Shown one piece after another: positions 1-36,330 of a stretch of 40,664 nucleotides of DNA. Within the stretch, counting starts at the first letter, position 1; every line of letters starts with the position of its first letter. Source of the stretch: a virus; the IMG/VR virus record IMGVR_UViG_3300050821_007467, positions 1 to 40,664 of that record. One strand, given 5' to 3'. The notes beneath the pieces were generated by a model, which was given only the letters and a program-made list of their open reading frames with translations, was not told where the DNA came from and made no database searches. Position numbers and translations under genes: made by a program.

Positions 1-942
1 AAGAATTTGCAATGGTATGCGGAACGCCAACGCAACATTTTCTTTGCTCATCTTGGCAATGTCAGCAATCGCAGACTCCTTGCCGCCACTGACACCCCAC
101 GGCTGCACCTTCAACCCTGCCGTCAAGATTGGCGTCCCACCCTGACGCAAGCCCTTGGATTGTTCATCCCAGCGGTCGCGCAATTGCTGCACTTGTTCCT
201 TATCAAGCACAAGGTCAGTAGAAAGCACCGCGCTAGGCCGTGCTTCATTCTGATAAAATTTCATTTGTTGACCGGTAATCGCCGCACCCAGACCAATGTC
301 AGCAATCGCAGCCTCAAGTGGCGACTGACCAAGCATCGGGCGCGGAAATTGTCGGTGCGTATTAAGTCGGATGTGCAACACATCCCGCATTGGAACCATA
401 AGCAATTCTGTCGATGTTCCCGTTAACCGATTGGTAATTACTTCATTGCCACCAAGCTGATAAAATACATCACCAGTAGTTGTAACATGCGGGCGGCACA
501 TTTCTGGAGACATCATGTGCAATTCATCAACTTCAAAACGGTCATTGCGCAGCGCAAGCGCATAGGCGTTACCCGTGAGGTAAAGCCCGCGCGTCATATT
601 CATCATGAAATCGGAAATTGATTGGTAGTCATTTGGATAACGCAAAATGCGACTAAGTGCTGAATTTGTTACACGTGTGCGGCCACCTTTGTTATTACTA
701 CGCCAATGATCACCAGCGCACATGGCTACGGTTTGCGCATATGCCGAAACGCAAGCCTCAACAATTGCAGATGAACTTATCGGGTAAACTGGATTAAGCC
801 CAAGCTGCCACCAATTAGAAGACGCACCATCCGGCAGCCAACCACCAGTAATTGGCAGCCAATACGGACCAGGGCGCACGTCGCCCTCGGCCGCACGTGT
901 CAACGACCGCCATCCGCTAACAATTAAATCACGCACTCCCAT
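1..942 (-). CDS. Portal protein, HK97 family (C-terminus beyond left edge)
   Basis: This is the dodecameric head portal through which DNA is packaged and ejected. The ATG at 942 opens a frame that runs off the left edge after 314 codons, so the gene is partial. Recognisable family features are the N-terminal region with NPVYPISSSAIVEACVSAYA, the TGNAYALALR stretch, the region ending QMKFYQNEARPSAVL, the DKEQVQQLRDRW segment followed by GGTPILTAGLKVQPW, and finally LAFRIPLQIL. In the HK97 portal family (PF04860) the same order is seen. The gene begins 8 bases after the stop of the preceding small gene and is the last gene of the late operon visible here. It lies downstream of the capsid gene rather than between terL and the protease, which is not the usual order. 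Confidence 0.93.
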   Translation of the reverse strand, partial: MGVRDLIVSGWRSLTRAAEGDVRPGPYWLPITGGWLPDGASSNWWQLGLNPVYPISSSAIVEACVSAYAQTVAMCAGDHWRSNNKGGRTRVTNSALSRILRYPNDYQSISDFMMNMTRGLYLTGNAYALALRNDRFEVDELHMMSPEMCRPHVTTTGDVFYQLGGNEVITNRLTGTSTELLMVPMRDVLHIRLNTHRQFPRPMLGQSPLEAAIADIGLGAAITGQQMKFYQNEARPSAVLSTDLVLDKEQVQQLRDRWDEQSKGLRQGGTPILTAGLKVQPWGVSGGKESAIADIAKMSKENVALAFRIPLQIL

Positions 943-1678: not shown

Positions 1679-4159
1679 TTACCACGTAACGTTCTGCGTC
1701 CAGGCCACCGTGCCAGGGCGCCGAATGGCCCAGTTCAACGGCGCGATCATGCGCAGAGCAATGCTGTCGGTCTGAAACAGCGAACGCTGCGGTGAAGCAA
1801 CCGTGCCCGGTGAACCACTAACAAGATCCAACGGGGTCGTGTCCTCCATGTGTAGCGTGGCCGTATCGCTGAGCTCCATACGCACCGCGTCACCTTGCAT
1901 GGTAACAAAATCCGCAGCGTCGATAAGCACCACGGTTTTCGATGGCACTGAGGCTGAGTCGATAATTGGAATGTTAGCCAACGACCCACGGCCAATTTCA
2001 TCCTTGAACGGGAAGATGCCGGTGTTGGCTGCGGTCGCAAGAGACGCAGACAACATATCACCGGGATTCATCAGCCACGCAGGCGACCTTACATTGCCGT
2101 AGAGGCTAGTCACCAACGCACCGACCAGCGATTTGATATCGCCGACAACAGCCGGAATGCCACCACCAGCGGTGGCAGTGGTCACGGTTATGCCGTTAAG
2201 GATGCCAGCCGGACGAATAGTCGTCGCCGGATTAGCGTCAATCAGGACGCTGTCAATGGCAACAGCGGTGTCCTGCTGGATCGCCTCGCGGATCACGCCT
2301 TCAATCGCCGGGATTGAATGCTCGCTCATCTCGCGTGTGAACACGGAAATGACCGCGAGCTTTTTCGGCGTGAAGGTTTGCGAAGTGAACGCACCCTGAC
2401 GGACCGGGATGGCCATGCCTTCGCCAACGAAACTACCGGCAAGCGATGGCGTGCGGCTGCGGGTCGGCATGATGATCTTGCCAGCCTGCCCAAAAGCCAA
2501 AGTCAAACCTTTTGCCGACAACCTCGGGAAAATGCTTTTGGCAAAAAGCAAACCCATAAGGTCGGCATAGATTTGATGCACGAGCTCCTGCGCCCAACCG
2601 GGTACAGTGGTCATCGCAGGCGCCGATGGTGCACGCATCACCCAGTCAGTAACAACTTTGGTCTGCTCGTCTTCACCGTAGATTTTCGTCCGTGCGGCTT
2701 CGAGTGACACACCCCAGTTTTTTGCAGCGATCAATGCGGTGCCAGCGTGCACAAGCAGATCAATTGAATCCCACTCCTTCTTGCGGGATTTAATGATGAT
2801 CGGAGCAGTAACTGAGTCGTGGATGACCTCAGGCTGCGTGAACGTCGTAGTCGAAAGCGCTCGGCTACGCGATTCACCATTGGGCTTAACACTGTTGCCC
2901 ATCATATTTTTTTCAGCCTCGACCAACTGCGCATGCCGCTTGCAGGCACTCGCAATTTGATCATTAAGCTCTTGGGTCTTTACCATTTCAGCATCCGACA
3001 CATTGGTGTCGTCTTCCTTGGCAAGGTGCTCCTCAAGCTCAGTACGCTTACTGGTAATGTAGGTCTGCAAGTCGGTAATTCGTTGAGCTAACGACATTGT
3101 CGCGCCCTTTCGTATTTGAGATGTATTGGCTTGCCCGCCATGATTAACGGCACGCTTGACGGTACGGTTCCCTTTGCCATGCCCGGCGAAAACCATTTTC
3201 ATCGTGTCGTCAGATATCTTCAAGGACTTTGCAACCGAAAGCGCGTTCGAATTTGCCGGTACTGCTACCAGGCTGCACTCGACTAGCTGTTGCTTGCTAT
3301 AACGCGCTCCAGAAAACGGATCCCTGGGATTAATCGGGACAAACTCAAGCGGCTTAAAGCCGACACTAACCGCGCGCAATATTCCCGCTTCTACCAACGC
3401 GCGAATTTCGTCAATGCGCGGACTGGTGCCCTTCGGGGCAAGTTCCAGGTGGCCGCGCAACTGATTGCCTTTAACGCCAACGCCAGCCCACTTCCCAATT
3501 GGGAAATCGGCCTTATGACCAAACAAGGCAATCGGGTTTTTCTTGAAATCTTCAAGATCCCAACCCGCCGCCTCAATTATGTCTCCCATGCGGTCTACAC
3601 TGTCGTCACTGAGCACAAATTCATTGCCATTAATAGTGCCTGCATGGGTCTTGTGTTTTATGCCACGAGCTGATTTATCAGAATTCTCCCATGAGATCTG
3701 ACATATTGACTCAGCGTCGCTATCTGGCATGTCTCCTTCTGCCTGACTGGTCACTTCATCGATGCAACGATCCATAAAATCATCATGTGATTCATCATCT
3801 TCAGGATCAGGAGCATCAATGTCCTCATAATCCCCATCGTCAGCTTTCTTGGCCATGCTGCGCTCCTTGGATACACTGGTGCGATTTGACTTGGCGTCTT
3901 GCCAAGCCGACTCACAAAATTCACGCGCGTCCTCGCCCTCGGCTTCAAGGCAACGCTCCATAAATTCGTCATAGTCCTCGTCAGGGCTTGGATCAGAAAA
4001 TGCCGGTGGTTCTTTTACAGTTTTATTGCGCCAAATGTCCAAACAAATAGCAACGGACTGCTCTTGGGTGCGCTTGTCCTTGTCTGGCCCCATCATTTCT
4101 GGGACGCACCGTGCAGTGAATTCGCTTTGTGTTTCACCCTTGCGTGGTTTCATCGGCAT
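1679..4159 (-). CDS. Prohead protease-major capsid protein fusion (HK97 type)
   Basis: An 826-residue fusion. Residues 1-160 hold three Cys-bearing modules of the form aromatic-x-x-R-C...C...W (C18/C39/W43, C70/C82/W86, C132/C153/W157). Residues 170-310 match the U35/HK97 prohead protease: SDDSVDRMGD, His215 in ALFGHK and Ser265 in RAVSVGF, spaced about like the HK97 His-Ser pair. Residues 355-826 form the capsid: a coiled-coil delta-like segment (MSLAQRITDLQ...), then the HK97 fold with SAPAMTTVPGWAQE and the C-terminal QTDSIALRM...RRPGTVAW. In most phages protease and capsid are separate genes; here they are one frame with a possible internal start at 3097. The ATG at 4159 follows GGAG. The protease would cleave the scaffold-like delta region during head maturation (family knowledge). 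Confidence 0.93.
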   Translation of the reverse strand: MPMKPRKGETQSEFTARCVPEMMGPDKDKRTQEQSVAICLDIWRNKTVKEPPAFSDPSPDEDYDEFMERCLEAEGEDAREFCESAWQDAKSNRTSVSKERSMAKKADDGDYEDIDAPDPEDDESHDDFMDRCIDEVTSQAEGDMPDSDAESICQISWENSDKSARGIKHKTHAGTINGNEFVLSDDSVDRMGDIIEAAGWDLEDFKKNPIALFGHKADFPIGKWAGVGVKGNQLRGHLELAPKGTSPRIDEIRALVEAGILRAVSVGFKPLEFVPINPRDPFSGARYSKQQLVECSLVAVPANSNALSVAKSLKISDDTMKMVFAGHGKGNRTVKRAVNHGGQANTSQIRKGATMSLAQRITDLQTYITSKRTELEEHLAKEDDTNVSDAEMVKTQELNDQIASACKRHAQLVEAEKNMMGNSVKPNGESRSRALSTTTFTQPEVIHDSVTAPIIIKSRKKEWDSIDLLVHAGTALIAAKNWGVSLEAARTKIYGEDEQTKVVTDWVMRAPSAPAMTTVPGWAQELVHQIYADLMGLLFAKSIFPRLSAKGLTLAFGQAGKIIMPTRSRTPSLAGSFVGEGMAIPVRQGAFTSQTFTPKKLAVISVFTREMSEHSIPAIEGVIREAIQQDTAVAIDSVLIDANPATTIRPAGILNGITVTTATAGGGIPAVVGDIKSLVGALVTSLYGNVRSPAWLMNPGDMLSASLATAANTGIFPFKDEIGRGSLANIPIIDSASVPSKTVVLIDAADFVTMQGDAVRMELSDTATLHMEDTTPLDLVSGSPGTVASPQRSLFQTDSIALRMIAPLNWAIRRPGTVAWTQNVTW
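3095..3110 (-). promoter_or_regulatory. Possible internal start for free capsid protein
   Basis: In frame with the fusion, an ATG (3097-3095, codon 355) is preceded on the minus strand by AAAGGG about 7 bases upstream. It lies exactly where the protease linker ends and the capsid delta domain begins. Initiation here would make a separate 472-residue capsid precursor from the same mRNA, giving the excess of capsid over protease that assembly needs. This is inferred from position and Shine-Dalgarno match only. Confidence 0.45.
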
Positions 4160-4162
4160 GGC

Positions 4163-4357
4163 TTACTCCTTGCCGGGTGGCGGATGCTGCGCGGCTGCAT
4201 GCGCGTGTGACTGCGGCACCAACCAAATAGTGCCATTGCCTTCGTCCGTGAAATGCACTTCAATCAACGTGGCTAAGTCCTCGTCCACTGGCTCGCGCTT
4301 GTCATTCAAATAAGCCACCAACGCAGGGCGCCCTTCCACTTCCATTTCTACAATCAT
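4163..4357 (-). CDS. Small hypothetical protein in head operon
   Basis: A 64-residue protein starting at the ATG at 4357, which overlaps the stop of the polyvalent gene as ATGA, so translation is probably coupled. A longer frame to 4405 would lie inside that gene and is not preferred. The sequence (MIVEMEVEGRPALVAYLND..., EVHFTDEGNGTIWLVPQ) looks like a small beta-rich domain with a His/Pro-rich tail. No family recognised. It ends 3 bases before the capsid fusion start. Confidence 0.65.
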   Translation of the reverse strand: MIVEMEVEGRPALVAYLNDKREPVDEDLATLIEVHFTDEGNGTIWLVPQSHAHAAAQHPPPGKE

Positions 4358-6927
4358 TTTTTTATCTTCCAAACTTTGTCCACGGCGCGGTACAAACTGC
4401 GCCACACCCGTGAGTTGGCCCGCTTGTTGGCTAGGCTGGTACCCTTGGGCAACGGAAAGCTACCTTTCATGTAACGCTCTATGGCCATCTCAGCGAGCGT
4501 TTCATGCTGGGCTGCAAAAAAAGCTACACCAGATTTATCCTTTTCTTCCCATTGCTTCCAATATTTTTCACTGTATGGTGAAACACCATCACCGTTGACA
4601 AATTTTTCAGGAGCAGGTTTAAAATATGCTTCATGCATTAATGTATAAGCTGGATATTTTTTATCATAGGGCGCACGCAAACTACCATCCGGATGCATTA
4701 TTGCACTAGACCCACCAACACGCTCCCAATAATTTTCTGCTTCCGGTCTAGGTGGCGGAGGCGGCTCGGACATTACAGCTTTAAATTCTTCCTGATAACG
4801 GTCATAAGCATTTTGAAATTTAATATGCTCTATTTCATGCGCCGTAACTGCCTTAGCAGTTTGTTCACCATAAATTTGATCAGGAAATAATTTAATCTTG
4901 CCTCTTAAATTAGGATCCGGGTCGCGCGTATAAGCCAGCCCCGCCGCTACGCATTGCTTGCCGTTAAGCGTGAAATTATATTTTTCTTCTGACGTAGCAA
5001 TTATAATCTTGTCCGTGTCGTACTTTAAATCTTTAGCAACACCAAATGCCGCGTCCTTTACCTTTTCCACATGCGAGCGTGTGTCTATTTTAACTTGTGT
5101 TTCTTCCGCAGCGGTGCGGTCCTTGCCAATAATTAAACTAACTACTCCATGGCCCCTGCTAACTTCACGGAAGCCAGCATCCTTATAGGACTTAAGAACG
5201 GCTTCTTCATCATGAAAAGCGGCGCTTTCCACTCGCTGGGCGCCCATGTCAAAGGCGTGCTCGGCAGCACGCTTTATTACTGCCGTGCGGGCGGAGTTGT
5301 CCAGCCCACCACCAAACGCAACCATGGACTCTTTTTTACTGGCGCTATAGCGTGTGGCAACTGCAGCCTGCAATTTGTTGTCATCATCATAAGCAACAAA
5401 TAATGCTACATTGCCATGGTCAATAGCGGGTTGGTCGGTACGTAAATATAAGCCAAGCGCACCGCGTATTTGCTGGTAAGCAACGTCCTCATCACCACCC
5501 GCGCGCCTGGAAGTAGAATTATGTGCTTCCTCAGCTTGCTTAAGCCAAGTTGCAACACGCTCCTTACTTAGAATTTGGAACGGACCGTGACTACCTGCAG
5601 GTGCCTCGTCCGGCGTTGCACCACTGCCACCACCAGCGTCCGTGAAGCGACCATGATCGTCACGTGGGTGCTCAGACTCGTCAAAGTCCTTAAACGGCGC
5701 AGACGCCCCTTTGCAGGCAACACAGGCTTTGCCGCATGGCTCTACTACCAGGTTGGCGCTTAAGCCATAAAACTTGATGAAGCTTTTCTTGGGTGGGTTG
5801 CGCCCAAGCCTTTTGGATTCATCCCATTTTTCGGCACATACTTCATTAGCTTTGTCTTCACCAACGCAAGGTATAAGCGCCAATATGCAACGGTCCATAA
5901 AGTCATAGCGACCCTCATCCTGGTCAGGCCACAACTCTACTTCAGTTTCCTCACGCGGCTCGTGCGCCTTAGTTACTTTTTTTTTAAGCTCTTCAGTAAG
6001 CTGCAGCACTGCTAACGATTGCGCCTTGATCGCATCCCACCGTTGCTTTTTTAATACGGCTGCTAGTTCAGCGTCAGTGGCCTTGTTCCATTCATCACTG
6101 CCAACTTGTAACTCATCCAGTTGCCACAGCATCGCTGCAAACACTTTGCCGACCGGAATCATTAACTCAGCTTGGCCCGCTGGCTTCTTGCCCTTGCCGC
6201 CTGTCCATTTTTCAGCCTCGGCAAGCAACTTTGTAATGGAAATGTCAACGCGGAAAATCTTAACGGACTTGTCATCATGCAAATTGTTGTCCTTGGCGTC
6301 CAAACCCAACTGCCCTGCCCAGGTGTGATGGCCATCCAATATGTAGTCATCCTTGGAAACAATAATTCGCTTATAAACACCCTCCTTCTTAAGGCGCTTC
6401 ATAGAAACCGCAACCTTGGCGCCGTCTATTTGGTCCTGAGTGGCACGCAGATTGGCAGCATACTCCTTGCCCTTTTCAACTACATAGCCTTGATCTTCAA
6501 GGTGGGCAACAAACGCCTTGGTTTGCTTGGCCGGGATCACCGGCATTTCCACGCGCGGGATACCTTTACTTTCCGCGCAGAATAAGTTGGTGCCCTTAAC
6601 GCTGACATCACACAGGTTGAACAACGGGGCCTTTTCACCGTGCTCTTCCATTTCCTTGGCCGTTTCACCAAGGCGTTTTATCAAGGTGCTAACCTGCTTG
6701 GGCTGGCTTAGTTCAACTTTCTTTTTTTCAAACAATGCGCGTTGCGCGTCATAAACATTGTTAGTGTGAATGACGCCCTTTATAAGACGAGCACTAGTTG
6801 AATAACCTTCACCGGGATGCTTCCCCTCGTCACCGTCATCCGAACCATCGCTACCACCATCTGTCCATTTACCACCTGGATCGCGTGGCTCATTTGGATC
6901 ATATTTTGGTACTAGCACTGATGTCAC
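4354..6927 (-). CDS. Multidomain polyvalent protein: ParB-like, GNAT-like and zincin domains
   Basis: An 857-residue protein with a GTG start directly after the previous stop. Visible parts: a PRDPGGKWTD motif (14-23); a region resembling ParB/sulfiredoxin-like nucleases with ILDGHHTWA (196-204); a Cys module like those in the capsid fusion (FMDRC 343-347, C364, W368); a Cys cluster (C398, C402, C405); a second HPRDDHGRFTD motif (420-430); an acetyltransferase-like region (about 450-600, with VALFVAYDDDN and YKDAGFREVS); and a metallopeptidase-like region with HEIEH (697-701) and a downstream HETLAEMAIERY (808-819) that could give the third zinc ligand. Such fusions resemble 'polyvalent proteins', thought to be packaged and injected with DNA. 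Its place just upstream of the protease-capsid gene and the shared Cys module support virion packaging (inference). The domain motifs are visible; activity is not proven. Confidence 0.75.
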   Translation of the reverse strand: MTSVLVPKYDPNEPRDPGGKWTDGGSDGSDDGDEGKHPGEGYSTSARLIKGVIHTNNVYDAQRALFEKKKVELSQPKQVSTLIKRLGETAKEMEEHGEKAPLFNLCDVSVKGTNLFCAESKGIPRVEMPVIPAKQTKAFVAHLEDQGYVVEKGKEYAANLRATQDQIDGAKVAVSMKRLKKEGVYKRIIVSKDDYILDGHHTWAGQLGLDAKDNNLHDDKSVKIFRVDISITKLLAEAEKWTGGKGKKPAGQAELMIPVGKVFAAMLWQLDELQVGSDEWNKATDAELAAVLKKQRWDAIKAQSLAVLQLTEELKKKVTKAHEPREETEVELWPDQDEGRYDFMDRCILALIPCVGEDKANEVCAEKWDESKRLGRNPPKKSFIKFYGLSANLVVEPCGKACVACKGASAPFKDFDESEHPRDDHGRFTDAGGGSGATPDEAPAGSHGPFQILSKERVATWLKQAEEAHNSTSRRAGGDEDVAYQQIRGALGLYLRTDQPAIDHGNVALFVAYDDDNKLQAAVATRYSASKKESMVAFGGGLDNSARTAVIKRAAEHAFDMGAQRVESAAFHDEEAVLKSYKDAGFREVSRGHGVVSLIIGKDRTAAEETQVKIDTRSHVEKVKDAAFGVAKDLKYDTDKIIIATSEEKYNFTLNGKQCVAAGLAYTRDPDPNLRGKIKLFPDQIYGEQTAKAVTAHEIEHIKFQNAYDRYQEEFKAVMSEPPPPPRPEAENYWERVGGSSAIMHPDGSLRAPYDKKYPAYTLMHEAYFKPAPEKFVNGDGVSPYSEKYWKQWEEKDKSGVAFFAAQHETLAEMAIERYMKGSFPLPKGTSLANKRANSRVWRSLYRAVDKVWKIKK

Positions 6928-7281
6928 CTACGCAGCGGCGGGAGCACTGTCAATAGTAACGGTAATTCTTTGAGTTAATTCTTGAACTACGGGAGCATCG
7001 CGACCGCCAGAACGAATCCTGAGATACATTATAGGCGTCCACTCAGATTTCAAAATCAAAGCAGTACCGGCAAGAATATTGTAAGCAATTTCATTAGCAT
7101 TTGAGTCAAACAGATCACCAAAATTAGTACTGTCTGGAGAAACTCTAAATGAAATACAAGCCGAGGTCCAATCTTCTGGCATATAAATAGCAATCGGTGC
7201 GCCCATGCTGCAATCCACAACATTAGAGAGCGACTCACCCGCTTCAATTGTAACGACCTTGTTGATGTAACGAGCGGCCAT
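6928..7281 (-). CDS. Beta-rich hypothetical virion protein
   Basis: A 117-residue protein; the ATG at 7281 is preceded by GAGGG, whereas the longer frame begins with TTG. The pattern CISFRVSPDSTNFGDLFD, a hydrophobic strand IAYNILAGTALIL, then YLRIRSGGRDAPVVQELTQ and a strand-rich C-terminus recalls a recurring phage protein with an 'S.D...F..L.D' and 'LRIRSG' pattern, often near tail or fibre genes. No function is known to me. Its stop abuts the GTG of the polyvalent gene, so the two are co-transcribed. Confidence 0.65.
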   Translation of the reverse strand: MAARYINKVVTIEAGESLSNVVDCSMGAPIAIYMPEDWTSACISFRVSPDSTNFGDLFDSNANEIAYNILAGTALILKSEWTPIMYLRIRSGGRDAPVVQELTQRITVTIDSAPAAA

Positions 7282-7293
7282 AACCAACTTCCC

Positions 7294-7857
7294 TCATCTA
7301 CGCTCAAACGCCAACCAAGTTCCTTCGATATGACAAATGTCATGGCCGTTAAGTCGATCTAATTCCAGCACCGGAGCCACCTCAACACCACCGTTTTGAT
7401 AGTCATGCCAAATGATCACACCACCAGAGCGCACAATTGCACGGGCCAAGTCACTGTCATGACGCACGACCTCAGAGCTGTGATCGCCGTCAATGAACAC
7501 TGCATCAACAGGAAGAAGAAATTTGAAATTATTTGAAGTCAAATCAAGGGAACCTCGGGGAAATAGCCAACGATAAAACCTCGGGTCATCTGCGGCAAGA
7601 TATCCAGGCGAGGCGGAGCGCTCTGTCCATTGACCTGGCAGCTTGGTACGATAACTTGCATCAGTATCAATGCCAAGATAGCTACGCACTTCTGGCAATT
7701 CACGAAGAATTGCCTTGGCAGTGCGCCCCTCTGCCAATCCAATCTCAACCACTAAATCATGGTGCTTGGCTGACCTGACCAACGCTACAATTATCTCAAG
7801 CTCGCCTCGGTTTAGATACGTTGACGGCAGGTCGGTCCAATCCACCGGATAGATCAT
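7294..7857 (-). CDS. SAM-dependent methyltransferase (class I, Methyltransf_24-like)
   Basis: A 187-residue protein. The nucleotide-binding loop VVEIGLAEGRTAKAIL, the acidic end of strand 2 (YLGIDTDASY), DAVFIDGDHSSEVVRHD (motif IV/post-I region) and GGVIIWHDYQNGG are typical of small-molecule or sugar methyltransferases of the CmcI/Methyltransf_24 type, in which HDY and DGDH motifs recur. The start at 7857 lies 10 bases after the glycosyltransferase stop; upstream codons would overlap that gene. The pairing with a glycosyltransferase in the virion operon suggests methylation of a glycan or of a decorated virion protein (inference); the substrate is unknown. Confidence 0.82.
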   Translation of the reverse strand: MIYPVDWTDLPSTYLNRGELEIIVALVRSAKHHDLVVEIGLAEGRTAKAILRELPEVRSYLGIDTDASYRTKLPGQWTERSASPGYLAADDPRFYRWLFPRGSLDLTSNNFKFLLPVDAVFIDGDHSSEVVRHDSDLARAIVRSGGVIIWHDYQNGGVEVAPVLELDRLNGHDICHIEGTWLAFERR

Positions 7858-7867
7858 CAAGTTCAAA

Positions 7868-9043
7868 TCATTTTGTGCAATGACGGGCAACAAAGGCACT
7901 CTCCCAATCACCAGGACTAGTCTGTTTACAGATGCGCAAGTTTTGATAAAGCGGCAACTGCCAACGCCAGCTTGCCCAATGCGAAAGCATAAGTGTAATA
8001 CGCGGGTGCCCAATTGCCCCGGCCAGATGTACCGCAGCCGTGTCAACGGTCACAATTTCATCCATCAAGGACATCAAGGCGGCGCAATCGGCAAAGTCTT
8101 CAAACCTAATGCCGTTTTGCTGTACACTGTGCAACATAGCTTCGCCACCAAGATAACAAATAAATTTAGTGTGAGAACAAGAACGCGGAAAATCATCCTT
8201 GTGTTCAACACCAACGGACCACGCAATACCGATATTTTTATGGGTTCTATCAATTGTATTACGCCATTTATCAATCCATGCCGGAGCAACATTTAAATAA
8301 GGCGCAGCCCTCCCGGTCAAGTCGCTGAATTGCCCCATCAAAAGCAAAATAGAGCAAACATAGTCCGCATCAACAAGCTCATGCGTCACCGGCGCGACCT
8401 GTGCGGCCAAGCGTTCAAGCTCCGGTGGCACTTGCAGTACTACATCAGCGCCCATTGCTTGAAGCTGCGGCACAAACCGCAACATCATAATGGTGTCGCC
8501 AAAACCATGATCGTGGATCAGCAACAACTTCTTGCCAGCGATGGTCTCGCCGCGCCACGGCTTTAGTCCGCACTCCATCGCGACTGCCCACTGCGGGCGC
8601 ATGAATAGCGAAGAATTTTGTTCGCAATAGGCAAACTCATCAAAGCCTTCCTGCCAACACCCAAGCTGCAACAAGATCATAGCTCGGTTGTAGCGCGCCA
8701 GCACGGTGCGGGCACAAGCCAATGCTATATCAATTTCTGCAAGGGCTCGCAGCGGGTCATTATTGCGTATGAGCCTGGTCGAGCAATCAAGATGGCTAAT
8801 ATAGTCTGCAATGACACCATCACTAGGTTTACTTTCAATTGCGCAATAGCCAACGATTTTATCCCCGCGCCGCATCGCCATGCGCTCCGGAATAGTAATC
8901 GGTGTGCCATTGACATGCGCACTGACATTAAGAATTTCACCGTCCCTGGTCAAGCCACGCCAACCAACGGCAGTGTGTTCACAAACGATCACCGGCGCCA
9001 GGTCCGGTGCCTCAAACTGGAAAAAATGCTGTGGCTTGGTCAT
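7868..9043 (-). CDS. Glycosyltransferase, GT9/heptosyltransferase-like C-terminus
   Basis: A 391-residue protein starting at an ATG that overlaps the stop of the second capsid gene as ATGA. The middle has helical TPR-like sequence (NDPLRALAEIDIALACARTVLARYNRAMILLQLGCWQEGFDEF, shown by A/L/Y spacing). Then comes the hallmark W.GE...GKKLLLIHDHGFGDTIMMLRF, and a C-terminal DEIVTVDTAAVHLAGAIGHP like the donor-binding end of GT9/heptosyltransferase-like enzymes. TPR proteins with this C-terminus are common near phage and bacterial surface glycosylation genes. Its location between capsid-2 and the methyltransferase suggests glycosylation of virion proteins or of host surface sugars (inference). Confidence 0.82.
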   Translation of the reverse strand: MTKPQHFFQFEAPDLAPVIVCEHTAVGWRGLTRDGEILNVSAHVNGTPITIPERMAMRRGDKIVGYCAIESKPSDGVIADYISHLDCSTRLIRNNDPLRALAEIDIALACARTVLARYNRAMILLQLGCWQEGFDEFAYCEQNSSLFMRPQWAVAMECGLKPWRGETIAGKKLLLIHDHGFGDTIMMLRFVPQLQAMGADVVLQVPPELERLAAQVAPVTHELVDADYVCSILLLMGQFSDLTGRAAPYLNVAPAWIDKWRNTIDRTHKNIGIAWSVGVEHKDDFPRSCSHTKFICYLGGEAMLHSVQQNGIRFEDFADCAALMSLMDEIVTVDTAAVHLAGAIGHPRITLMLSHWASWRWQLPLYQNLRICKQTSPGDWESAFVARHCTK

Positions 9044-10119
9044 TTCCATGTCGGGGTCATCCACGCAACGCCGCGCGGATCACGCAGCGCCCAGCTAACC
9101 ACCCAGCGCATTTTGACCGCAATACTGTCCGTTTGCCACACGCTGCGTTCCGGTCCTACTGAACCAACTGGCTGCGGGGCCGTGTCCATGTGCAACGTTG
9201 CGGCGTTGCTGGTTTCAATTATTGGGTCAGTCCCGATAACGGAAGCGATGGCATTCTGCGCAATGGCCATTAAGTCATTGCCCATCGCGGACGAGCCAAA
9301 AATGGTGTTGGCGCTTTCTGATGGCGTTTCACCACCACGGATAAACCGCATCTGCAGCACGAATGAGCGTTGCGGTGAACCAACCAGGAAGAATGGCGTT
9401 TGTCCATTGCCAGCGACAGGCGCCACCGCACCAACTAAGGTGCTGATGTCTTCATAATAGGCTTCAAAAATGTCAGTGGCGCTGCTCGGCGTTAGTGCAG
9501 TGACGCCATTGCGCAGGCCAGCGGGTTGCGCCGCCGATGCCGCGCCTGTGCCAAAAAATGCTGCGTCAAGCGCAAGCCCCGCCGCCTTCATCAATGCATC
9601 ACTGACCAATGCTTCCGCATTTGATGACTCTATCATTTCACGCGTCAGCACCGCAATGCTGGCCAATTGATTGGGCTGCATCGAGGCTGGCGTTAACCCA
9701 AGATTGTGCACTGGGATCGGGGCACCCTCCGCCACAAACCCTGCAGCGGTTGCGTCCACGGCAAGCCCCGGCACCAGGATAGTGCCGTGCCCGTCAAACG
9801 CCAACACCAACCCCTCACGCATCACCCGTGTTGCTGATGAAACACCAGACATAACCTGAATGGCGTCGGTAACAAAAATCTGCGCAAGCTCCTGTGCCCA
9901 ACCGGGCACAGTGGTCATGGCTGGTGCACTGGCGGCACGCTCAATAATTTCGCCAATCAGCTTGTCGCGTGGCCACATTGTAGCTGCCACTTCCCCCGAC
10001 GAACGACGATAAACACTGGCCAATACCTTGGCCGTCAAAAAGCGTCGGAAGCAATTACCGGGTGGCAACGGCTCAGGTTTTGGCGCAAAAAACGCTTTTT
10101 TCACAGTACTGTCAAGCAT
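9040..10119 (-). CDS. Second HK97-fold capsid-like protein
   Basis: A 359-residue protein with a GAGGAA Shine-Dalgarno before the ATG at 10119. It is clearly paralogous to the capsid part of the fusion at 1679-4159: both contain SAPAMTTVPGWAQEL, LTREM, a P-A-G-x-x-N-G-V/I-T segment, ATLHM and a C-terminus QTDSIA(L/V)(R/K)M...W(A)(I/L)R..(P)GVAW. It lacks the protease and the coiled-coil delta segment and has a short basic N-terminus instead. It could be a minor capsid subunit, a capsomer for special positions, a decoration protein with the same fold, or a captured capsid gene. Sharing an operon with the fusion makes co-expression likely. Confidence 0.88.
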   Translation of the reverse strand: MLDSTVKKAFFAPKPEPLPPGNCFRRFLTAKVLASVYRRSSGEVAATMWPRDKLIGEIIERAASAPAMTTVPGWAQELAQIFVTDAIQVMSGVSSATRVMREGLVLAFDGHGTILVPGLAVDATAAGFVAEGAPIPVHNLGLTPASMQPNQLASIAVLTREMIESSNAEALVSDALMKAAGLALDAAFFGTGAASAAQPAGLRNGVTALTPSSATDIFEAYYEDISTLVGAVAPVAGNGQTPFFLVGSPQRSFVLQMRFIRGGETPSESANTIFGSSAMGNDLMAIAQNAIASVIGTDPIIETSNAATLHMDTAPQPVGSVGPERSVWQTDSIAVKMRWVVSWALRDPRGVAWMTPTWK

Positions 10120-12058: not shown

Positions 12059-13816
12059 CTATGCAATCAAGGTGCTAAGGTCAAGGGGCGCCGGAGGTTT
12101 TTTGACTAACGCCAGATTACAAGCCATCGCCATCGCTACCAATGCATCAATACGTGCCTGATACTGACTGATGCTTTTGTCAAACTTGCGGTTACCTGCA
12201 GGGTCACGCGTCACCACCGCATTGTTGGCGCACCACGTCAGCGCCGGGTGGCCACCATGCCGGAGCTTTTTGCCAACCAACAGGCGCTCCACAACGTCTA
12301 CGGCGGTTGACATGTCCTTGTAACCTTGGCCGTGCTCAACCAGCGGCACGTTGCAGCCGATGGCGTCAAGCTCACGTTTGAGCTCTTCCATGCGCCAGCG
12401 GTCAAAGGCTATGCCGCGTATCTTGTGCTTGCCGTGTAGCTCCGCGATCTTACGGGCTATTACGCGCGGGTCCGTGGTCATGCCAGCTTCAAAGACGATA
12501 CCCTCCTTGGCCCAGGCCGCGTAAGGGGCGCCGTCTTCATTGGTGCGGGCGTTAAGGTCACCCGGCACCCACACGTAAGGCACCACGCTGACTTCACCAC
12601 TGACAGGGTCCTGCGCCGCGAGTACCAAAGCGGACATATCCCGTGTACTGCCCAGGTCCAGGCCACCGTAGACAATCATCCCTGGATTGATGGCAGGCGT
12701 CGCCACGCACGCCTTCCACGCGGAAGGCTCTATGAACCGCGCCTCCGCAGCGATGCGCTGGTTTAGAATCAAGTTACGGAACGCATTTTCCTGTGCCGGT
12801 ATGCGCTGGCCCTGCAACGCCATGCGCCGCACATCCTCCATGCTGCGGAAGTCACCCAACGCCGGGTTGGCCATGTGCCAAGTTTTAACATCCCACGGGT
12901 CAGCCTCATCCGGGGCAGTGTACAACGTCAGGTGGAAGCTTGGATCTTTAATGTCCCCGGCTTTGACTTTAATGCCGTAGTCAATCAGTTGGCTGAACGG
13001 CGCCGCGCTGGTGGCAGCCTGCGTGCTGATGACCAATAACAGCGGCTCCTTGCGGGCGCCCATGGCGCTGTCCATAGTGTCGTACAGTTCGCGGCTGTTG
13101 GACTGGCCAAGCTCATCATACACCACAAAGCTAGGGCTAAGGCCCATCTTGGTTTTAGCTTCACTGGTCAGTGTGTAAAATACACTGTGATTGTCTAGGT
13201 CTTCAATATCCTTCCGAGCACGGTACACGTTGCTGCGGTCACGCAGGTAGTCATTGGCCCGCAGCATGGCGTACATTTCATTAAACAACTTGCTGGCCTG
13301 GAAACGATCGTTAGCACAGGCGTATACTTCACCGCGCTCTTCGGCCTCCGGCCCGGACAAATGACACAGCGCAAGCGCCGCCGCCAATTGGGTTTTACCA
13401 TTCTTGCGGCCCATACTGAGCACCGCCGTCCGCACCAGGCGCCGCCCTTCATTGTCCGTGGCGTAAACTGCCTCAATAAACTGCCGCTGCCAGGGTCGCA
13501 GGCTTAACTTCTGCCCCTCAAGCTCCCCGGAAGTAATTACAAGGCTTTCAATGAAGGCAATGACCTTGGCGGCACGATTGCGACCCGGCGTTTGCCAGGG
13601 CTGGCGCGGCTCACTGGGGTTATAAACCCCGCGCCTTCTGCGGCGATGCACTGGGGCGCCATTAATGCGCTGCAGGCGTGCGTCGCGTTCTTCCTGCACT
13701 GCAGCACGCAGCCGCATAGCCCGCTTTTCAATAGAGGTATATTTACCCCTGCCACCAGGGTTGGGGTTAGTTTCCACCTTTTTATTGGGCTTGGCGCCCG
13801 GACCACGTACACCCAC
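12059..13816 (-). CDS. terL: Terminase large subunit (HK97-like)
   Basis: A 585-residue DNA-packaging motor. Walker A is GRKNGKT (136-142), Walker B is VVYDE (231-235), followed by the coupling region LLLVISTQA. The RNase H-like nuclease domain shows GGLDLGSTRDMSALVL and FDRW, with a late D in QARIDALVAMAMA. Length and motifs match the Terminase_1/HK97 group. The start is GTG at 13816: an in-frame TAA lies two codons upstream and GAGG lies about 7 bases away; the ATG at 13820 is out of frame. No small terminase subunit is recognisable nearby; it may be outside the window or too diverged. Confidence 0.95.
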   Translation of the reverse strand: MGVRGPGAKPNKKVETNPNPGGRGKYTSIEKRAMRLRAAVQEERDARLQRINGAPVHRRRRRGVYNPSEPRQPWQTPGRNRAAKVIAFIESLVITSGELEGQKLSLRPWQRQFIEAVYATDNEGRRLVRTAVLSMGRKNGKTQLAAALALCHLSGPEAEERGEVYACANDRFQASKLFNEMYAMLRANDYLRDRSNVYRARKDIEDLDNHSVFYTLTSEAKTKMGLSPSFVVYDELGQSNSRELYDTMDSAMGARKEPLLLVISTQAATSAAPFSQLIDYGIKVKAGDIKDPSFHLTLYTAPDEADPWDVKTWHMANPALGDFRSMEDVRRMALQGQRIPAQENAFRNLILNQRIAAEARFIEPSAWKACVATPAINPGMIVYGGLDLGSTRDMSALVLAAQDPVSGEVSVVPYVWVPGDLNARTNEDGAPYAAWAKEGIVFEAGMTTDPRVIARKIAELHGKHKIRGIAFDRWRMEELKRELDAIGCNVPLVEHGQGYKDMSTAVDVVERLLVGKKLRHGGHPALTWCANNAVVTRDPAGNRKFDKSISQYQARIDALVAMAMACNLALVKKPPAPLDLSTLIA

Positions 13817-15479: not shown

Positions 15480-16067
15480 TCAGGCAGCAACCTGCTGTAG
15501 AGCCTCGCCATTGCGCCTACGGCGCGCATTACGCTTGCGCGTCCGCAACACATGCAGCGGCTCAATGCTTTTCTCGGTAACCTCAACCGGTACCATTTGG
15601 CCCAGCCAAGGCATAAGCACCACGCAGCGCCCTGTACGCAGCCTGTACTGATACAAGCCTTCACAACCGTACATCACGCTTTCGTCAACTATCGCAACAC
15701 GGTCACCAAACGCAAAACGCTCGCGCACGTTTGTCAGTAGTGGCAAAACGTAGTCACCTTGCACCACGCGCGCCTCAGCCACCAGTTTACTGATAATTTC
15801 TTCCGCTAGGATTGCAGGTGCTGCACCAACACGCACATAGTCCAGCACACCGGTCAATTCACGCACCAGTGCCCAAAGCGTTTCTTGCATGTGGATGAAA
15901 ATGTAACGCGGGAAGGCTGGCACGCGCTCCGTCAGCATAACGCCGCGTCGTAAGCGCATAATTTCATGCTTGAACAGAAAGTGATTTATTTCATGCCGTG
16001 CAAGGCTGTTACTGGCGATACGTTCACCACGCGGTTCTGTAACGATGAGCGCCCAGCACGGCTGCAC
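15480..16067 (-). CDS. NusG-like transcription elongation/antitermination factor
   Basis: A 195-residue protein. The N-terminal domain matches the NGN fold: CWALIVTEPRGERIASNSL, ...LTERVPAFPRYIFIHM (the 'P.FPrYiFv' motif), VLDYVRVGAAPAIL. The C-terminal part has a KOW-like FAFGDRVAIVDE and a beta-rich remainder, then a very basic tail (RKRNARRRRN). RfaH/LoaP-type paralogs of NusG promote read-through of long operons. Encoded at the head of the late leftward cluster, it is a good candidate for switching on structural genes. I chose GTG 16067 because GAGG lies 5 bases upstream; TTG 16082 is possible. Confidence 0.82.
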   Translation of the reverse strand: MQPCWALIVTEPRGERIASNSLARHEINHFLFKHEIMRLRRGVMLTERVPAFPRYIFIHMQETLWALVRELTGVLDYVRVGAAPAILAEEIISKLVAEARVVQGDYVLPLLTNVRERFAFGDRVAIVDESVMYGCEGLYQYRLRTGRCVVLMPWLGQMVPVEVTEKSIEPLHVLRTRKRNARRRRNGEALQQVAA

Positions 16068-16074
16068 GGCTGCC

Positions 16075-16197
16075 TCACGCAATTTTCATGTTGTGGCCTT
16101 GGATTACGTAAGCGGCACAAGTTGGGTCAAAACGTTTAGCCGAGCCGGGGGAGCTTGGCAACACCTGCACCGAGGACTTGGTGGTTGTCAAACCCAT
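16075..16197 (-). CDS. Short leader ORF upstream of NusG-like gene
   Basis: A 40-codon frame from the ATG at 16197, ending in AAACGTTTTGACCC-coded KRFDPTCAAYVIQGHNMKIA; its stop overlaps the start region of the NusG-like gene. A perfect 9-bp hairpin containing GGGGTG ends just before the ATG, so its ribosome site may be hidden in RNA structure. It could be a real small protein or a regulatory leader peptide. A longer TTG-initiated frame to 16278 runs through the operator repeats and is not preferred. Confidence 0.45.
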   Translation of the reverse strand: MGLTTTKSSVQVLPSSPGSAKRFDPTCAAYVIQGHNMKIA

Positions 16198-28508: not shown

Positions 28509-28765
28509 AATTCGTACCGTTGCCATCAAAGTTCCAAGAACTACGTGTGTGGGGCACCACGGTTGATGATAGATTTACATTTGTCGTAAGTAAGGATGAA
28601 GAAGAGCGCGAATGGCGTGCCAGCGTTAAGGCCGTAGGTGCCAAGCGGTTTGACAACACCCGCCACGACCTTGGTGAGTTTGACAGTAAAGAAGCAGCCG
28701 AGGCAGCTTGTGAAACGTTTTATGCACAGTGGAAAAGTGACCGCAAGGATGACCGCCAATGTTAA
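28505..28765 (+). CDS. Small hypothetical protein
   Basis: An 86-residue protein starting in an ATGA overlap. A beta-rich first half (ELRVWGTTVDDRFTFVVSKDEE) is followed by EWRASVKAVGAKRFD and a helix DSKEAAEAACETFYAQW. The 'D(S)KEAAEAAC..F...W' ending is common in small phage proteins of unknown role. It overlaps the exonuclease start by 7 bases. Confidence 0.6.
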   Translation: MKFVPLPSKFQELRVWGTTVDDRFTFVVSKDEEEREWRASVKAVGAKRFDNTRHDLGEFDSKEAAEAACETFYAQWKSDRKDDRQC

Positions 28766-29322
28766 GGGCCATGTTGTTTGACACCGAGACAACAGGACTT
28801 ATGTCTACCGCCTTGCTGCAGGCAGATCGGCAGCCCAGCGTGATAGAGTTTTACGGCGCCCTGTACACGTTCAACGGTACCAGCAAGTATAGGCTACTGC
28901 GTGAATTAGACTTGCTGATAAAACCACCAACACCGTTTAAGGAAGAAGGCACCCGCCGCAAAAACATCACCGCCATCACCGGGCTTACAAATGACATGCT
29001 TGCAGGCAAGCCAATGTTTGCTCAAGTGGCCAAGCAAATTTTTAGCTTTATTGAAGAAGCCCCATTGGTAATCGCGCACAACTTGGCCTTTGACAAGGAA
29101 GTGTTGAACCTTGAGGGGCAACGCTTGCAGCGCGTTATTAACTGGCCAATGGGCCTATGTACCATAGAGCAAACCGCGCACCTAAAAGGCGACCGCATGA
29201 AGCTTGAGGAAATGTACACTCACCTGTTCAAGGAAAAATTCGCCACCGCGCACCGCGCCAAAGCGGACGTGCAAGCCCTGGCCAAATGCTGCAATGAGCT
29301 ACACCGGCAGGGGATTATTTAA
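28759..29322 (+). CDS. DnaQ-like 3'-5' exonuclease (DEDDh)
   Basis: A 187-residue proofreading-type exonuclease. ExoI is LFDTETTG (Asp8, Glu10), ExoII is VIAHNLAFDKEVL (Asp112), ExoIII epsilon is AHRAKADVQALAKC (His165, Asp170). ITGLTNDML is also typical. It probably works with the phage DnaE polymerase encoded about 1 kb downstream, replacing host epsilon. The start overlaps the preceding gene. No PHP or clamp-binding motif is obvious. Confidence 0.92.
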   Translation: MLRAMLFDTETTGLMSTALLQADRQPSVIEFYGALYTFNGTSKYRLLRELDLLIKPPTPFKEEGTRRKNITAITGLTNDMLAGKPMFAQVAKQIFSFIEEAPLVIAHNLAFDKEVLNLEGQRLQRVINWPMGLCTIEQTAHLKGDRMKLEEMYTHLFKEKFATAHRAKADVQALAKCCNELHRQGII

Positions 29323-35394: not shown

Positions 35395-36330
35395 TTATGA
35401 ATTTTCATGCTCATTTATTTCAGGTACATTGGCACCATTCCTTGCCACGTCAATAACGTGCACCTTGCCACGCTTTTCAAAAAATCTAAGCTTGCCATCA
35501 GCTTCCAATTCCCGGCAAAACTGCAATATTTTTTCCGGGGCTATGTCATTAAAAAACCCTTGCAAGCGTGTCAGGTTAATTCCCAAACCTCTGACAGTAA
35601 CAGCTTCCATAATGGCGCTTTTGGTGCGTGCGTGTTCTTGTTCTTCACGCTTCCATTCCGGCACGTAATGGCGCTCCGGCGTTTCAGCTTTATAGTTTTC
35701 GTATACTCCTATTTCGGTGGTCAACCGCCGCAGTTTGCGCATGGTGGTGGGGTTCCTTAGCCTACGCAGTGCATGCATTTCCATCTGCCTGATGCGTTCA
35801 CGGCCAACACCAAATTCATTGCCAATCTCCTCCAAAGTTTTTTCCGCACCGTCAAAGCCAAACCGCTCCGCTAGTACACGATGCTCGCGCGGGCTAACAC
35901 GCTCAATCATTAGACTAAACAATTTTTGCTGTAGTTCCTTGTCTGCCAATGCTTGCTCAGGGTCAACTGGCTCTTGCGTAACTAATGCACGCACCTCGTC
36001 AAATGTAATTTCAAACTCACCGTTGTTTTTGGCCAAGGCACGGTCCAGGTGCTGCTCGGGGAATAAACTCTCTGGTGGCAGGCGCAGTAAGGCTGACATT
36101 TTCAATACTGAGTCAAACCATTCACCTTTTTTATTAATCGGTGCGCGCGTAAGTGACAAGTATCTATAGAGCAGGCTTATGGCAAAGCCAGCGTCCTCAC
36201 TAAATTTTTTCATTGTGCGGTAGCCGCGCATGCGGATGGCCCGCAGCAATGGGCCATTTTTAATTTTGAACTGGACAACGTAGTCGCTGCCCTGCTCTGG
36301 TGGGTCGTATATGTCTATTTGGTTGGGCAT
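35395..36330 (-). CDS. Sigma region-4 protein with N-terminal HTH
   Basis: A 311-residue transcription factor. Residues 25-95 look like an HTH module (NGPLLRAIRMRGYRTMKKFS, EDAGFAISLLYRYLSL, ending in LPPESLFPEQ) seen before sigma-like domains in other phages. Residues 124-193 form sigma-70 region 4: PEQALADKELQQKL, PREHRVLAERFG, KTLEEIGNEFGVGRERIRQM, ALRRLRNP. Region 2 (core binding and -10 melting) is absent, so it cannot act as an ordinary sigma factor alone. The C-terminal 90 residues (TKSAIMEAVTVRGLGINL, ILQFCRELEADGKLRFFEKR) resemble a winged helix. It may redirect host polymerase through its -35-binding domain and its HTH. Confidence 0.85.
   Translation of the reverse strand: MPNQIDIYDPPEQGSDYVVQFKIKNGPLLRAIRMRGYRTMKKFSEDAGFAISLLYRYLSLTRAPINKKGEWFDSVLKMSALLRLPPESLFPEQHLDRALAKNNGEFEITFDEVRALVTQEPVDPEQALADKELQQKLFSLMIERVSPREHRVLAERFGFDGAEKTLEEIGNEFGVGRERIRQMEMHALRRLRNPTTMRKLRRLTTEIGVYENYKAETPERHYVPEWKREEQEHARTKSAIMEAVTVRGLGINLTRLQGFFNDIAPEKILQFCRELEADGKLRFFEKRGKVHVIDVARNGANVPEINEHENS

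What the first reader, a model, noticed from the sequence alone, without database searches (positions are those of the whole stretch)
4354..6927. ParB-like, GNAT-like and zincin domains fused in a head-operon protein
One frame holds DGHH (ParB-like), an acetyltransferase-like stretch and HEIEH with a downstream E-rich helix, set between virion genes. This composition resembles polyvalent proteins proposed to enter the cell with phage DNA. The combination, and its position next to the protease-capsid gene, may describe an injected effector not yet characterised.
Basis: partly seen in the sequence, partly recalled or inferred. Interest (0 to 1): 0.75.

Follow-up and report, generated by a model that had tools for sequence, protein, structure and literature searches.

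The report
Tagged, probably injected phage effector protein
This phage gene makes a string of enzyme-like modules (ParB-like, acetyltransferase-like and metalloprotease-like) that is probably carried in the virus head and injected into the bacterium, and it bears a short peptide tag that, in hundreds of copies in related uncultured phages, precedes many different injected-type enzymes and is sometimes joined directly to the capsid or portal protein.

Summary
ORF 4354-6927(-), 857 aa, lies in the head operon between a terminase/second-capsid block and a protease-capsid gene. Predicted folds confirm a ParB/sulfiredoxin domain (DGHH invariant in 36/36 relatives) and a GNAT domain. Alignment supports a zincin (HExxH 19/19, downstream xET[LIM]AE 19/19). 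Pfam recognises none of it. The GNAT lacks the canonical acetyl-CoA loop, and the ParB is not Pfam's DdrB-ParB.

Each half starts with a short tag, [FYW]D..xPRDxxG[KR][WF]T.GGG. About 240 copies occur in 178 of 2212 ORFs in related loci (3 expected in shuffles). They precede ParB, GNAT, zincin and other tagged proteins that match zeta-toxin, ADP-ribosyltransferase and topoisomerase families, but not head domains. Tagged cargo is repeatedly fused to the protease-major capsid protein, to a second capsid protein, or to the portal C-terminus. A second helical module (FMxRC..W) occurs only in protease-capsid proteins and, nearly always, tagged cargo.

Most likely it is a head-packaged effector string, with tag and helical module acting in loading or handling. 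New variant of polyvalent proteins.

The parts
4354..6927 (-). Whole target ORF, 857 aa: tag1 - ParB - helices - FMxRC..W module - tag2 - GNAT-like - zincin
6853..6903 (-). Tag 1 (residues 9-25, YDPNEPRDPGGKWTDGG), low-confidence/disordered in the model
6172..6795 (-). ParB/sulfiredoxin-like domain, residues 45-252
6325..6336 (-). DGHH motif, residues 198-201, invariant in 36/36 relatives
5818..5928 (-). Helical FMxRC..C..W ('fm') module, residues 334-370, shared with the protease-MCP N-terminus
5626..5685 (-). Tag 2 (residues 415-434, FDESEHPRDDHGRFTDAGGG)
5119..5568 (-). GNAT-fold domain, residues 454-603; canonical acetyl-CoA loop not conserved
4366..5073 (-). Zincin-like metallopeptidase domain, residues 619-854
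4825..4839 (-). HEIEH (HExxH) motif, residues 697-701
   Evidence: HExxH in 19/19
4486..4506 (-). HETLAEM motif, residues 808-814, likely third zinc ligand
   Evidence: xET[LIM]AE[MI] in 19/19
4163..4357 (-). 64-aa ORF overlapping the target stop (ATGA) and ending 3 nt before the capsid start; standalone copy of an N-terminal 'GRPA..AYL.DKFEPV' leader found on tagged cargo and on one protease-MCP
1679..4159 (-). S78 protease - HK97-type major capsid protein fusion (phrog_617)
3680..4138 (-). Three fm-module copies at the N-terminus of the protease-MCP
   Evidence: sequence; module search
6928..7287 (-). 119-aa conserved small protein abutting the target start (stop-start contact); homologues in other loci of the set
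9040..10119 (-). Second, protease-less capsid-like protein; in L004, L018 and L198 its relatives carry a tag N-terminal to the capsid domain
12059..13816 (-). Terminase large subunit
1..942 (-). Portal protein (partial, contig end)

Best explanation
The ORF encodes a head-packaged polyvalent effector. It is built as two tagged cargo units, tag1-ParB and tag2-GNAT/zincin, joined by a helical module (fm) that is also repeated at the N-terminus of the phage's own protease-capsid precursor. Proposed path: (1) it is made late with the head proteins (shown: same operon, overlapping small ORF); (2) it enters the prohead during assembly, by fm-fm contact with the capsid precursor and/or by the N-terminal tag acting as a capsid-targeting peptide (inferred); (3) the S78 maturation protease and/or its own zincin trims the string (inferred); (4) it is ejected with the DNA, and the ParB-like enzyme acts on nucleic acid or nucleotides while the zincin acts on host proteins or on the string itself (inferred). 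In relatives the same cargo is loaded by direct fusion to the protease-MCP, a second MCP or the portal.
For: Folds: GNAT, ParB/Srx, zincin motifs. Operon position. Tagged cargo fused to the protease-MCP N-terminus in 11 distinct ORFs, to MCP alone in 3, to the portal C-terminus in 5 (e.g. L003 1137 aa, L021 1671 aa, L093 880 aa portal-tag-tag-zincin). The fm module occurs in 56 S78/MCP proteins and in 12 other proteins, 10 of them strictly tagged, out of 2212 unique ORFs. The tag ends within 80 aa upstream of GNAT 10/10 and ParB 42/81, but 0 of 284 head and neighbour domains. The 94 tagged proteins scanned match effector families (zeta toxin 7, ART 6, topoisomerase I 4, ParB_N 2, GNAT 2) or head proteins (MuF 8, portals, head maturation proteases). 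117 of 129 tag DNA-pattern matches are in frame inside an ORF. Precedent: the first 30 residues of P1 DarB direct a reporter to the capsid, and DarB, DdrB and DarA are in the virion (PMC9024508); polyvalent proteins are predicted to be packaged (PMC5512222).
Against: No proteomics; every locus of this group is an uncultured metagenomic contig. The tag's partner and function are unknown. In every fused ORF inspected the capsid's own ATG is kept, mostly with a ribosome-site-like sequence, so fusion proteins may be minor or may partly reflect stop-codon loss. Only 7/29 zincin and 42/81 ParB domains have a tag directly in front. Cultured phages with a related ParB (F116, JC1) and cultured relatives of the tagged portals lack the tag, so it is not general. 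The GNAT is probably not a canonical acetyltransferase.
Confidence: 0.7

Rival explanations
1. The tag is a maturation-protease processing site (T4 LxE-like): the S78 protease or the cargo's own zincin cuts at each tag to release individual effectors inside the prohead.
For: Tags sit at module borders, up to six per protein (L076) by the loose motif, and are followed by Gly-rich, probably accessible linkers; models give low confidence there. P1 DarA and DdrB are reported or believed to be processed.
Against: In tag-ParB-fm-S78-MCP ORFs the tag lies N-terminal of the cargo, so cutting at the tag alone would not free the cargo from the capsid protein. No tag precedes the MCP domain inside protease-MCP proteins (0/84).
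Confidence: 0.25
2. The tag is only a recombination-friendly linker through which phages swap effector modules; it has no binding role.
For: Extensive module shuffling; tags within a locus are more alike (0.65) than between loci (0.52).
Against: Invariant residues use many synonymous codons (P 4, R 6, G 4 codons), so the peptide, not the DNA, is conserved; a bare linker would not keep R, G, W, T near 100%.
Confidence: 0.2
3. The protein is a head-assembly or regulatory factor that stays in the producing cell (for example a partition-like ParB or a scaffold protease), not an injected effector.
For: ParB fold and head-operon position; no direct evidence of ejection.
Against: Direct fusions of the same domains to capsid and portal; swap partners are toxin-type domains such as zeta toxin and ART. 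No ParA-like partner was recognised among the window genes scanned, though not every ORF was scanned.
Confidence: 0.12
4. The tagged proteins act mainly against competing bacteria or co-infecting phages (toxin role) rather than supporting early infection.
For: Zeta-toxin, ART and glucosaminidase families among tagged proteins resemble MuF polymorphic toxins (PMC5576092).
Against: The target's own domains (ParB, zincin) are those of P1-type early-infection helpers (PMC5512222).
Confidence: 0.2

Closest known systems
Polyvalent proteins of phages (Iyer et al. 2017, PMC5512222), incl. P1 DdrB
   Same: Several unrelated enzymatic domains (ParB/Srx, zincin, GNAT) in one late-operon protein; portal and MuF fusions known there too
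   Different: ParB family outside Pfam ddrB-ParB; repeated tag and fm module; fusion to the protease-major capsid protein; none of these found in the searched passages of that paper
Capsid-targeting sequence of P1 DarB and T4 internal proteins (PMC9024508)
   Same: Short N-terminal peptide on an internal virion protein; tag 1 lies in residues 9-25 here
   Different: P1 DarB shows no tag motif; here the tag also occurs inside proteins, often once per cargo unit
MuF polymorphic toxins (PMC5576092)
   Same: Effector domains attached to a minor head protein; 8 of 94 tagged proteins match MuF
   Different: The target has no MuF domain; cargo is free or joined to capsid or portal
PHROG 2859 (unknown function; matched by 36/36 ParB members here)
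   Same: Contains the same ParB-like domain; ParB region also found in F116 and JC1 proteins
   Different: The F116 and JC1 ParB proteins carry no tag
Encapsulin cargo-loading peptides (HK97-fold shells; own knowledge, search)
   Same: Possible analogy: short peptide plus flexible linker loads enzymes into an HK97-fold shell
   Different: No sequence relation tested; here the peptide is N-terminal of cargo and in phages

Membership tests
Phage polyvalent proteins | At least two biochemically disparate domains in one polypeptide | tested here: met
   ParB/Srx, GNAT fold, zincin motifs
Phage polyvalent proteins | Encoded with late/virion genes of a portal-terminase phage | tested here: met
Phage polyvalent proteins | Packaged and delivered early in infection | not testable with these tools
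   needs virion proteomics; capsid/portal fusions in relatives are indirect support
DdrB-like ParB (PF18763) | Profile match | tested here: not met
   no match in the window at E<=10; not among Pfam hits of any of 36 members at E<=1
DdrB-like ParB (PF18763) | Conserved active-site Arg | tested here: inconclusive
   position after DGHH is T/H/R/S/N/K; equivalence inferred from motif only
ParB/sulfiredoxin superfamily | Fold | tested here: met
   top matches ParB-N, Noc, Srx (weak E-values 0.006 and up); rows 1-17 all ParB/Noc/PadC/KorB/Srx, Z up to 8.3
GNAT | Fold | tested here: met
   all 50 listed PDB matches GNAT-type; Z 12.3
GNAT | Acetyl-CoA loop Q/RxxGxG/A | tested here: not met
   replaced by a G[AG]xDxxA-like stretch in the eight rows
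Zincin metallopeptidase | HExxH and downstream Glu helix | tested here: met
   19/19 and 19/19 rows
Zincin metallopeptidase | Fold | tested here: inconclusive
   well-predicted region but the fold search was filled by the GNAT half
P1/T4-type capsid-targeting sequence | Short N-terminal peptide sufficient to load a heterologous protein | not testable with these tools
   tag 1 is at residues 9-25; sufficiency needs an experiment
MuF polymorphic toxin | MuF domain | tested here: not met
   no Pfam hit in the target

The most novel reading that the evidence does not exclude
PRDxxG[KR]W-GGG is a general effector-loading peptide of a large group of uncultured HK97-type phages: each injected enzyme carries its own tag, strings of tagged enzymes are assembled like beads, and some phages attach the string directly to the protease-capsid precursor or portal to set its copy number per head.
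Probability: 0.35. Interest if true: 0.82.

Novelty: new variant of a known kind. Interest (0 to 1): 0.62.

Why it matters
How tailed phages outside T4 and P1 choose which proteins to pack with their DNA is largely open. A short conserved peptide that precedes unrelated effector-type domains, and appears on free proteins as well as on capsid and portal fusions, would give a sequence handle for finding injected effectors without knowing their function. It would also make the loading question directly testable with reporter fusions. The recurrent fusion of ParB/GNAT cargo to the protease-major capsid protein was not found in the literature searched.

Tried and rejected
Chance motifs: rejected; folds and 36/36 and 19/19 conservation. 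Assembly error as cause of the ParB-capsid fusion: rejected, seen in distinct contigs of differing sequence from several metagenomes. Obligate capsid fusion: not supported; the internal capsid ATG persists. DdrB-ParB membership: profile not met. Host identification: two genome-contig scans gave none, then four distant MAG loci; host remains unknown. A tblastn of the bare tag against cultured phages found nothing, which is inconclusive for so short a query. Tag DNA pattern in 398 genomes drawn from the group of the L104 genome: one match. PDB sequence search: no hit. Zincin fold search: not separated from the GNAT half (no structure jobs left), so its fold rests on motifs, alignment and a confident model. 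Papers searched for a description of the tag or of capsid-polyvalent fusions: none found; subscription papers are not held. Enrichment of tags inside the head block against outside it was modest (15.5% vs 10.1% and 7.8%), because contigs are short and many divergent head genes were not recognised; it is not used as an argument.

Full report
What is there. The frame at 4354-6927 on the minus strand is open for 857 codons. It starts with GTG directly after the stop of a 119-aa ORF. Its TGA stop overlaps (ATGA) the start of a 64-aa ORF that ends 3 nt before the capsid start (sequence). It therefore sits in one strand-consistent head operon: TerL, tail-fibre-like protein, second capsid-like protein, GT/TPR protein, methyltransferase, 119-aa protein, target, 64-aa ORF, S78 protease-HK97 capsid fusion, portal. 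The contig is a virus record of 40,664 bases.

Domains. Pfam finds nothing in the protein at E<=1. PHROG 2859 (unknown function) matches residues 104-244 at 2e-24, with a weak ParB-like hit. A 36-member alignment of the ParB region shows an invariant DGHHxW core. The predicted N-half places residues 150-250 with ParB, Noc and sulfiredoxin structures (Z up to 8.3, Foldseek E 0.006 at best, but the list is nearly all one superfamily). Residues 449-857 were predicted at mean pLDDT 90. The first half is a GNAT fold (Z 12.3). However, the acetyl-CoA loop Q/RxxGxG/A is replaced in all eight aligned GNAT rows, so enzyme activity is doubtful. The C-terminal part carries HExxH in 19/19 and xET[LIM]AE[MI] in 19/19 aligned rows, the signature of a zincin with a downstream Glu helix. 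Its fold was not tested separately, because the GNAT half filled the structure search.

Modular relatives. The same domains recur in other combinations in uncultured phages. L002 has tag-GNAT-zincin (462 aa). L005 has ParB-zincin without GNAT. L006 has fm-tag-zincin. L020 has GNAT-ParB. In L003, L004, L013, L017, L018, L021, L050, L052, L060 and L062 the ParB domain, sometimes with GNAT, continues in frame into fm-S78 protease-major capsid protein (ORFs of 905-1933 aa). In L093-L095 the zincin is attached to the portal C-terminus after two tags. By the strict motif, tags lie N-terminal of S78 in 11 distinct ORFs, N-terminal of a lone capsid domain in 3, and C-terminal of the portal domain in 5. 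In the fused ORFs inspected, the capsid gene's own ATG is retained, mostly with a ribosome-site-like sequence, so capsid is probably also made alone. The fusion product may be a minor subunit.

The tag. The target has the same short motif at residues 9-25 and 415-434. Across the loci a strict motif finds 240 tags in 178 of 2212 unique ORFs, against 3.15 in residue shuffles. Among 228 distinct tags, 194 have the short spacing and show P 0.97, R 1.00, D 0.98, G 1.00, W 0.92 (otherwise F), T 0.94, then a Gly-rich run; a longer spacing variant (PR.PAG.P.GGQF) also exists. R and G at 1.00 are in part fixed by the regular expression. Codons of the conserved residues vary synonymously, so the peptide is what is kept. 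The tag ends within 80 aa before 10/10 GNAT, 42/81 ParB and 7/29 zincin domains with room upstream, but before 0 of 284 terminase, protease, capsid, portal and other neighbour domains. A sample of 116 loci fetched by the tag's DNA pattern alone has 117 of 129 matches in frame in an ORF. Of the 39 loci with both a strict tag gene and a recognised head gene, 31 have them within two genes, 11 of these in the same gene. Families matched by 94 tagged proteins include Zeta_toxin 7, ADP-ribosyltransferase 6, Topoisomerase I 4, ParB_N 2, GNAT 2, 2H and glucosaminidase 1 each, and also MuF 8, portals and head maturation proteases. Cultured relatives of the tagged portals (Brevundimonas phage Polewnik, about 50% identical) lack the tag. 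Of 398 cellular genomes, one had the pattern.

The fm module. A helical stretch FMxRC..C..W at target residues 334-370 also occurs three times at the N-terminus of the window's protease-capsid protein. An iterated profile finds it in 56 proteins with S78/MCP domains and in 12 others, 10 of which carry the strict tag. A third, 48-aa leader stands alone between target and capsid here, but forms the N-terminus of 14 tagged cargo proteins and of one protease-capsid protein (L099). Modules that occur on both capsid precursor and cargo point to a shared place, the prohead interior.

Mechanism. The best explanation is packaging in the head and ejection with DNA (0.7). Packaging precedents are P1 DarB, whose first 30 residues suffice to load a reporter (PMC9024508), and predicted packaged polyvalent proteins (PMC5512222). 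Inferred, not shown: the tag and/or fm act in loading; the S78 protease or the zincin trims the string; ParB acts on nucleic acid or nucleotides. The main rival for the tag is a processing site. Against it, in tag-ParB-fm-S78-MCP proteins the tag is on the far side of the cargo, so cutting there would not free it.

Novelty. As a protein it is a new member of the polyvalent class; ParB, zincin and GNAT combinations and portal fusions are described by Iyer et al. 2017. New in the material searched are the repeated effector tag, the capsid-cargo shared module, and fusion of polyvalent cargo to the protease-major capsid protein. I therefore rate it a new variant of a known kind.

Limits. All relatives of this group are metagenomic contigs with mechanical gene calls. 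The tag expression was written after seeing examples, and part of the set was fetched with a query that included the first tag. Alignments for folding were 20 and 40 rows. No host, no virion and no activity has been observed.

Noticed in passing
window 15480-16082 (-): NusG-like transcription factor (Pfam NusG E 2.6e-11), on the same strand and upstream of the terminase/head block; possible antiterminator for the late operon.
   Followed up: no
window 35395-36330 (-): 311-aa protein with sigma-70 region 4 (E 3e-14); possible phage sigma factor.
   Followed up: no
window 30297-33275 (+): 992-aa DNA polymerase III alpha-type polymerase with PHP domain, near a DnaQ-like exonuclease (28759-29322).
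   Followed up: no
window 9040-10119 (-): Second capsid-like protein without protease in the same operon (phrog_617); a matching pair occurs in many relatives.
   Followed up: partly
window 7294-9064 (-): Methyltransferase and glycosyltransferase/TPR genes inside the head operon, conserved with position in several relatives; possible virion glycosylation or methylation.
   Followed up: no
window 6928-7287 (-): 119-aa protein (GESLS..DC...R..SGTR pattern) conserved in other loci, no Pfam or PHROG hit; role unknown.
   Followed up: partly
L046:7101-9980: Between two tags, a thioredoxin-reductase-like FAD/NAD-binding sequence as apparent cargo (read from sequence).
   Followed up: no
L204:2-4369; L175:1527-3536: Other post-tag segments: P-loop zeta-toxin-like, HD-like and JAB/RadC-like sequences (read by eye; not each scanned alone).
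   Followed up: partly
L227:1231-2148: Only tag match in 398 cellular genomes: a 305-aa ORF with tag and an unrecognised C-terminal part; possibly a prophage remnant.
   Followed up: partly
L076:3765-9329: 1854-aa protein with six loose-motif tags and a C-terminal zincin, the longest tag series seen.
   Followed up: no
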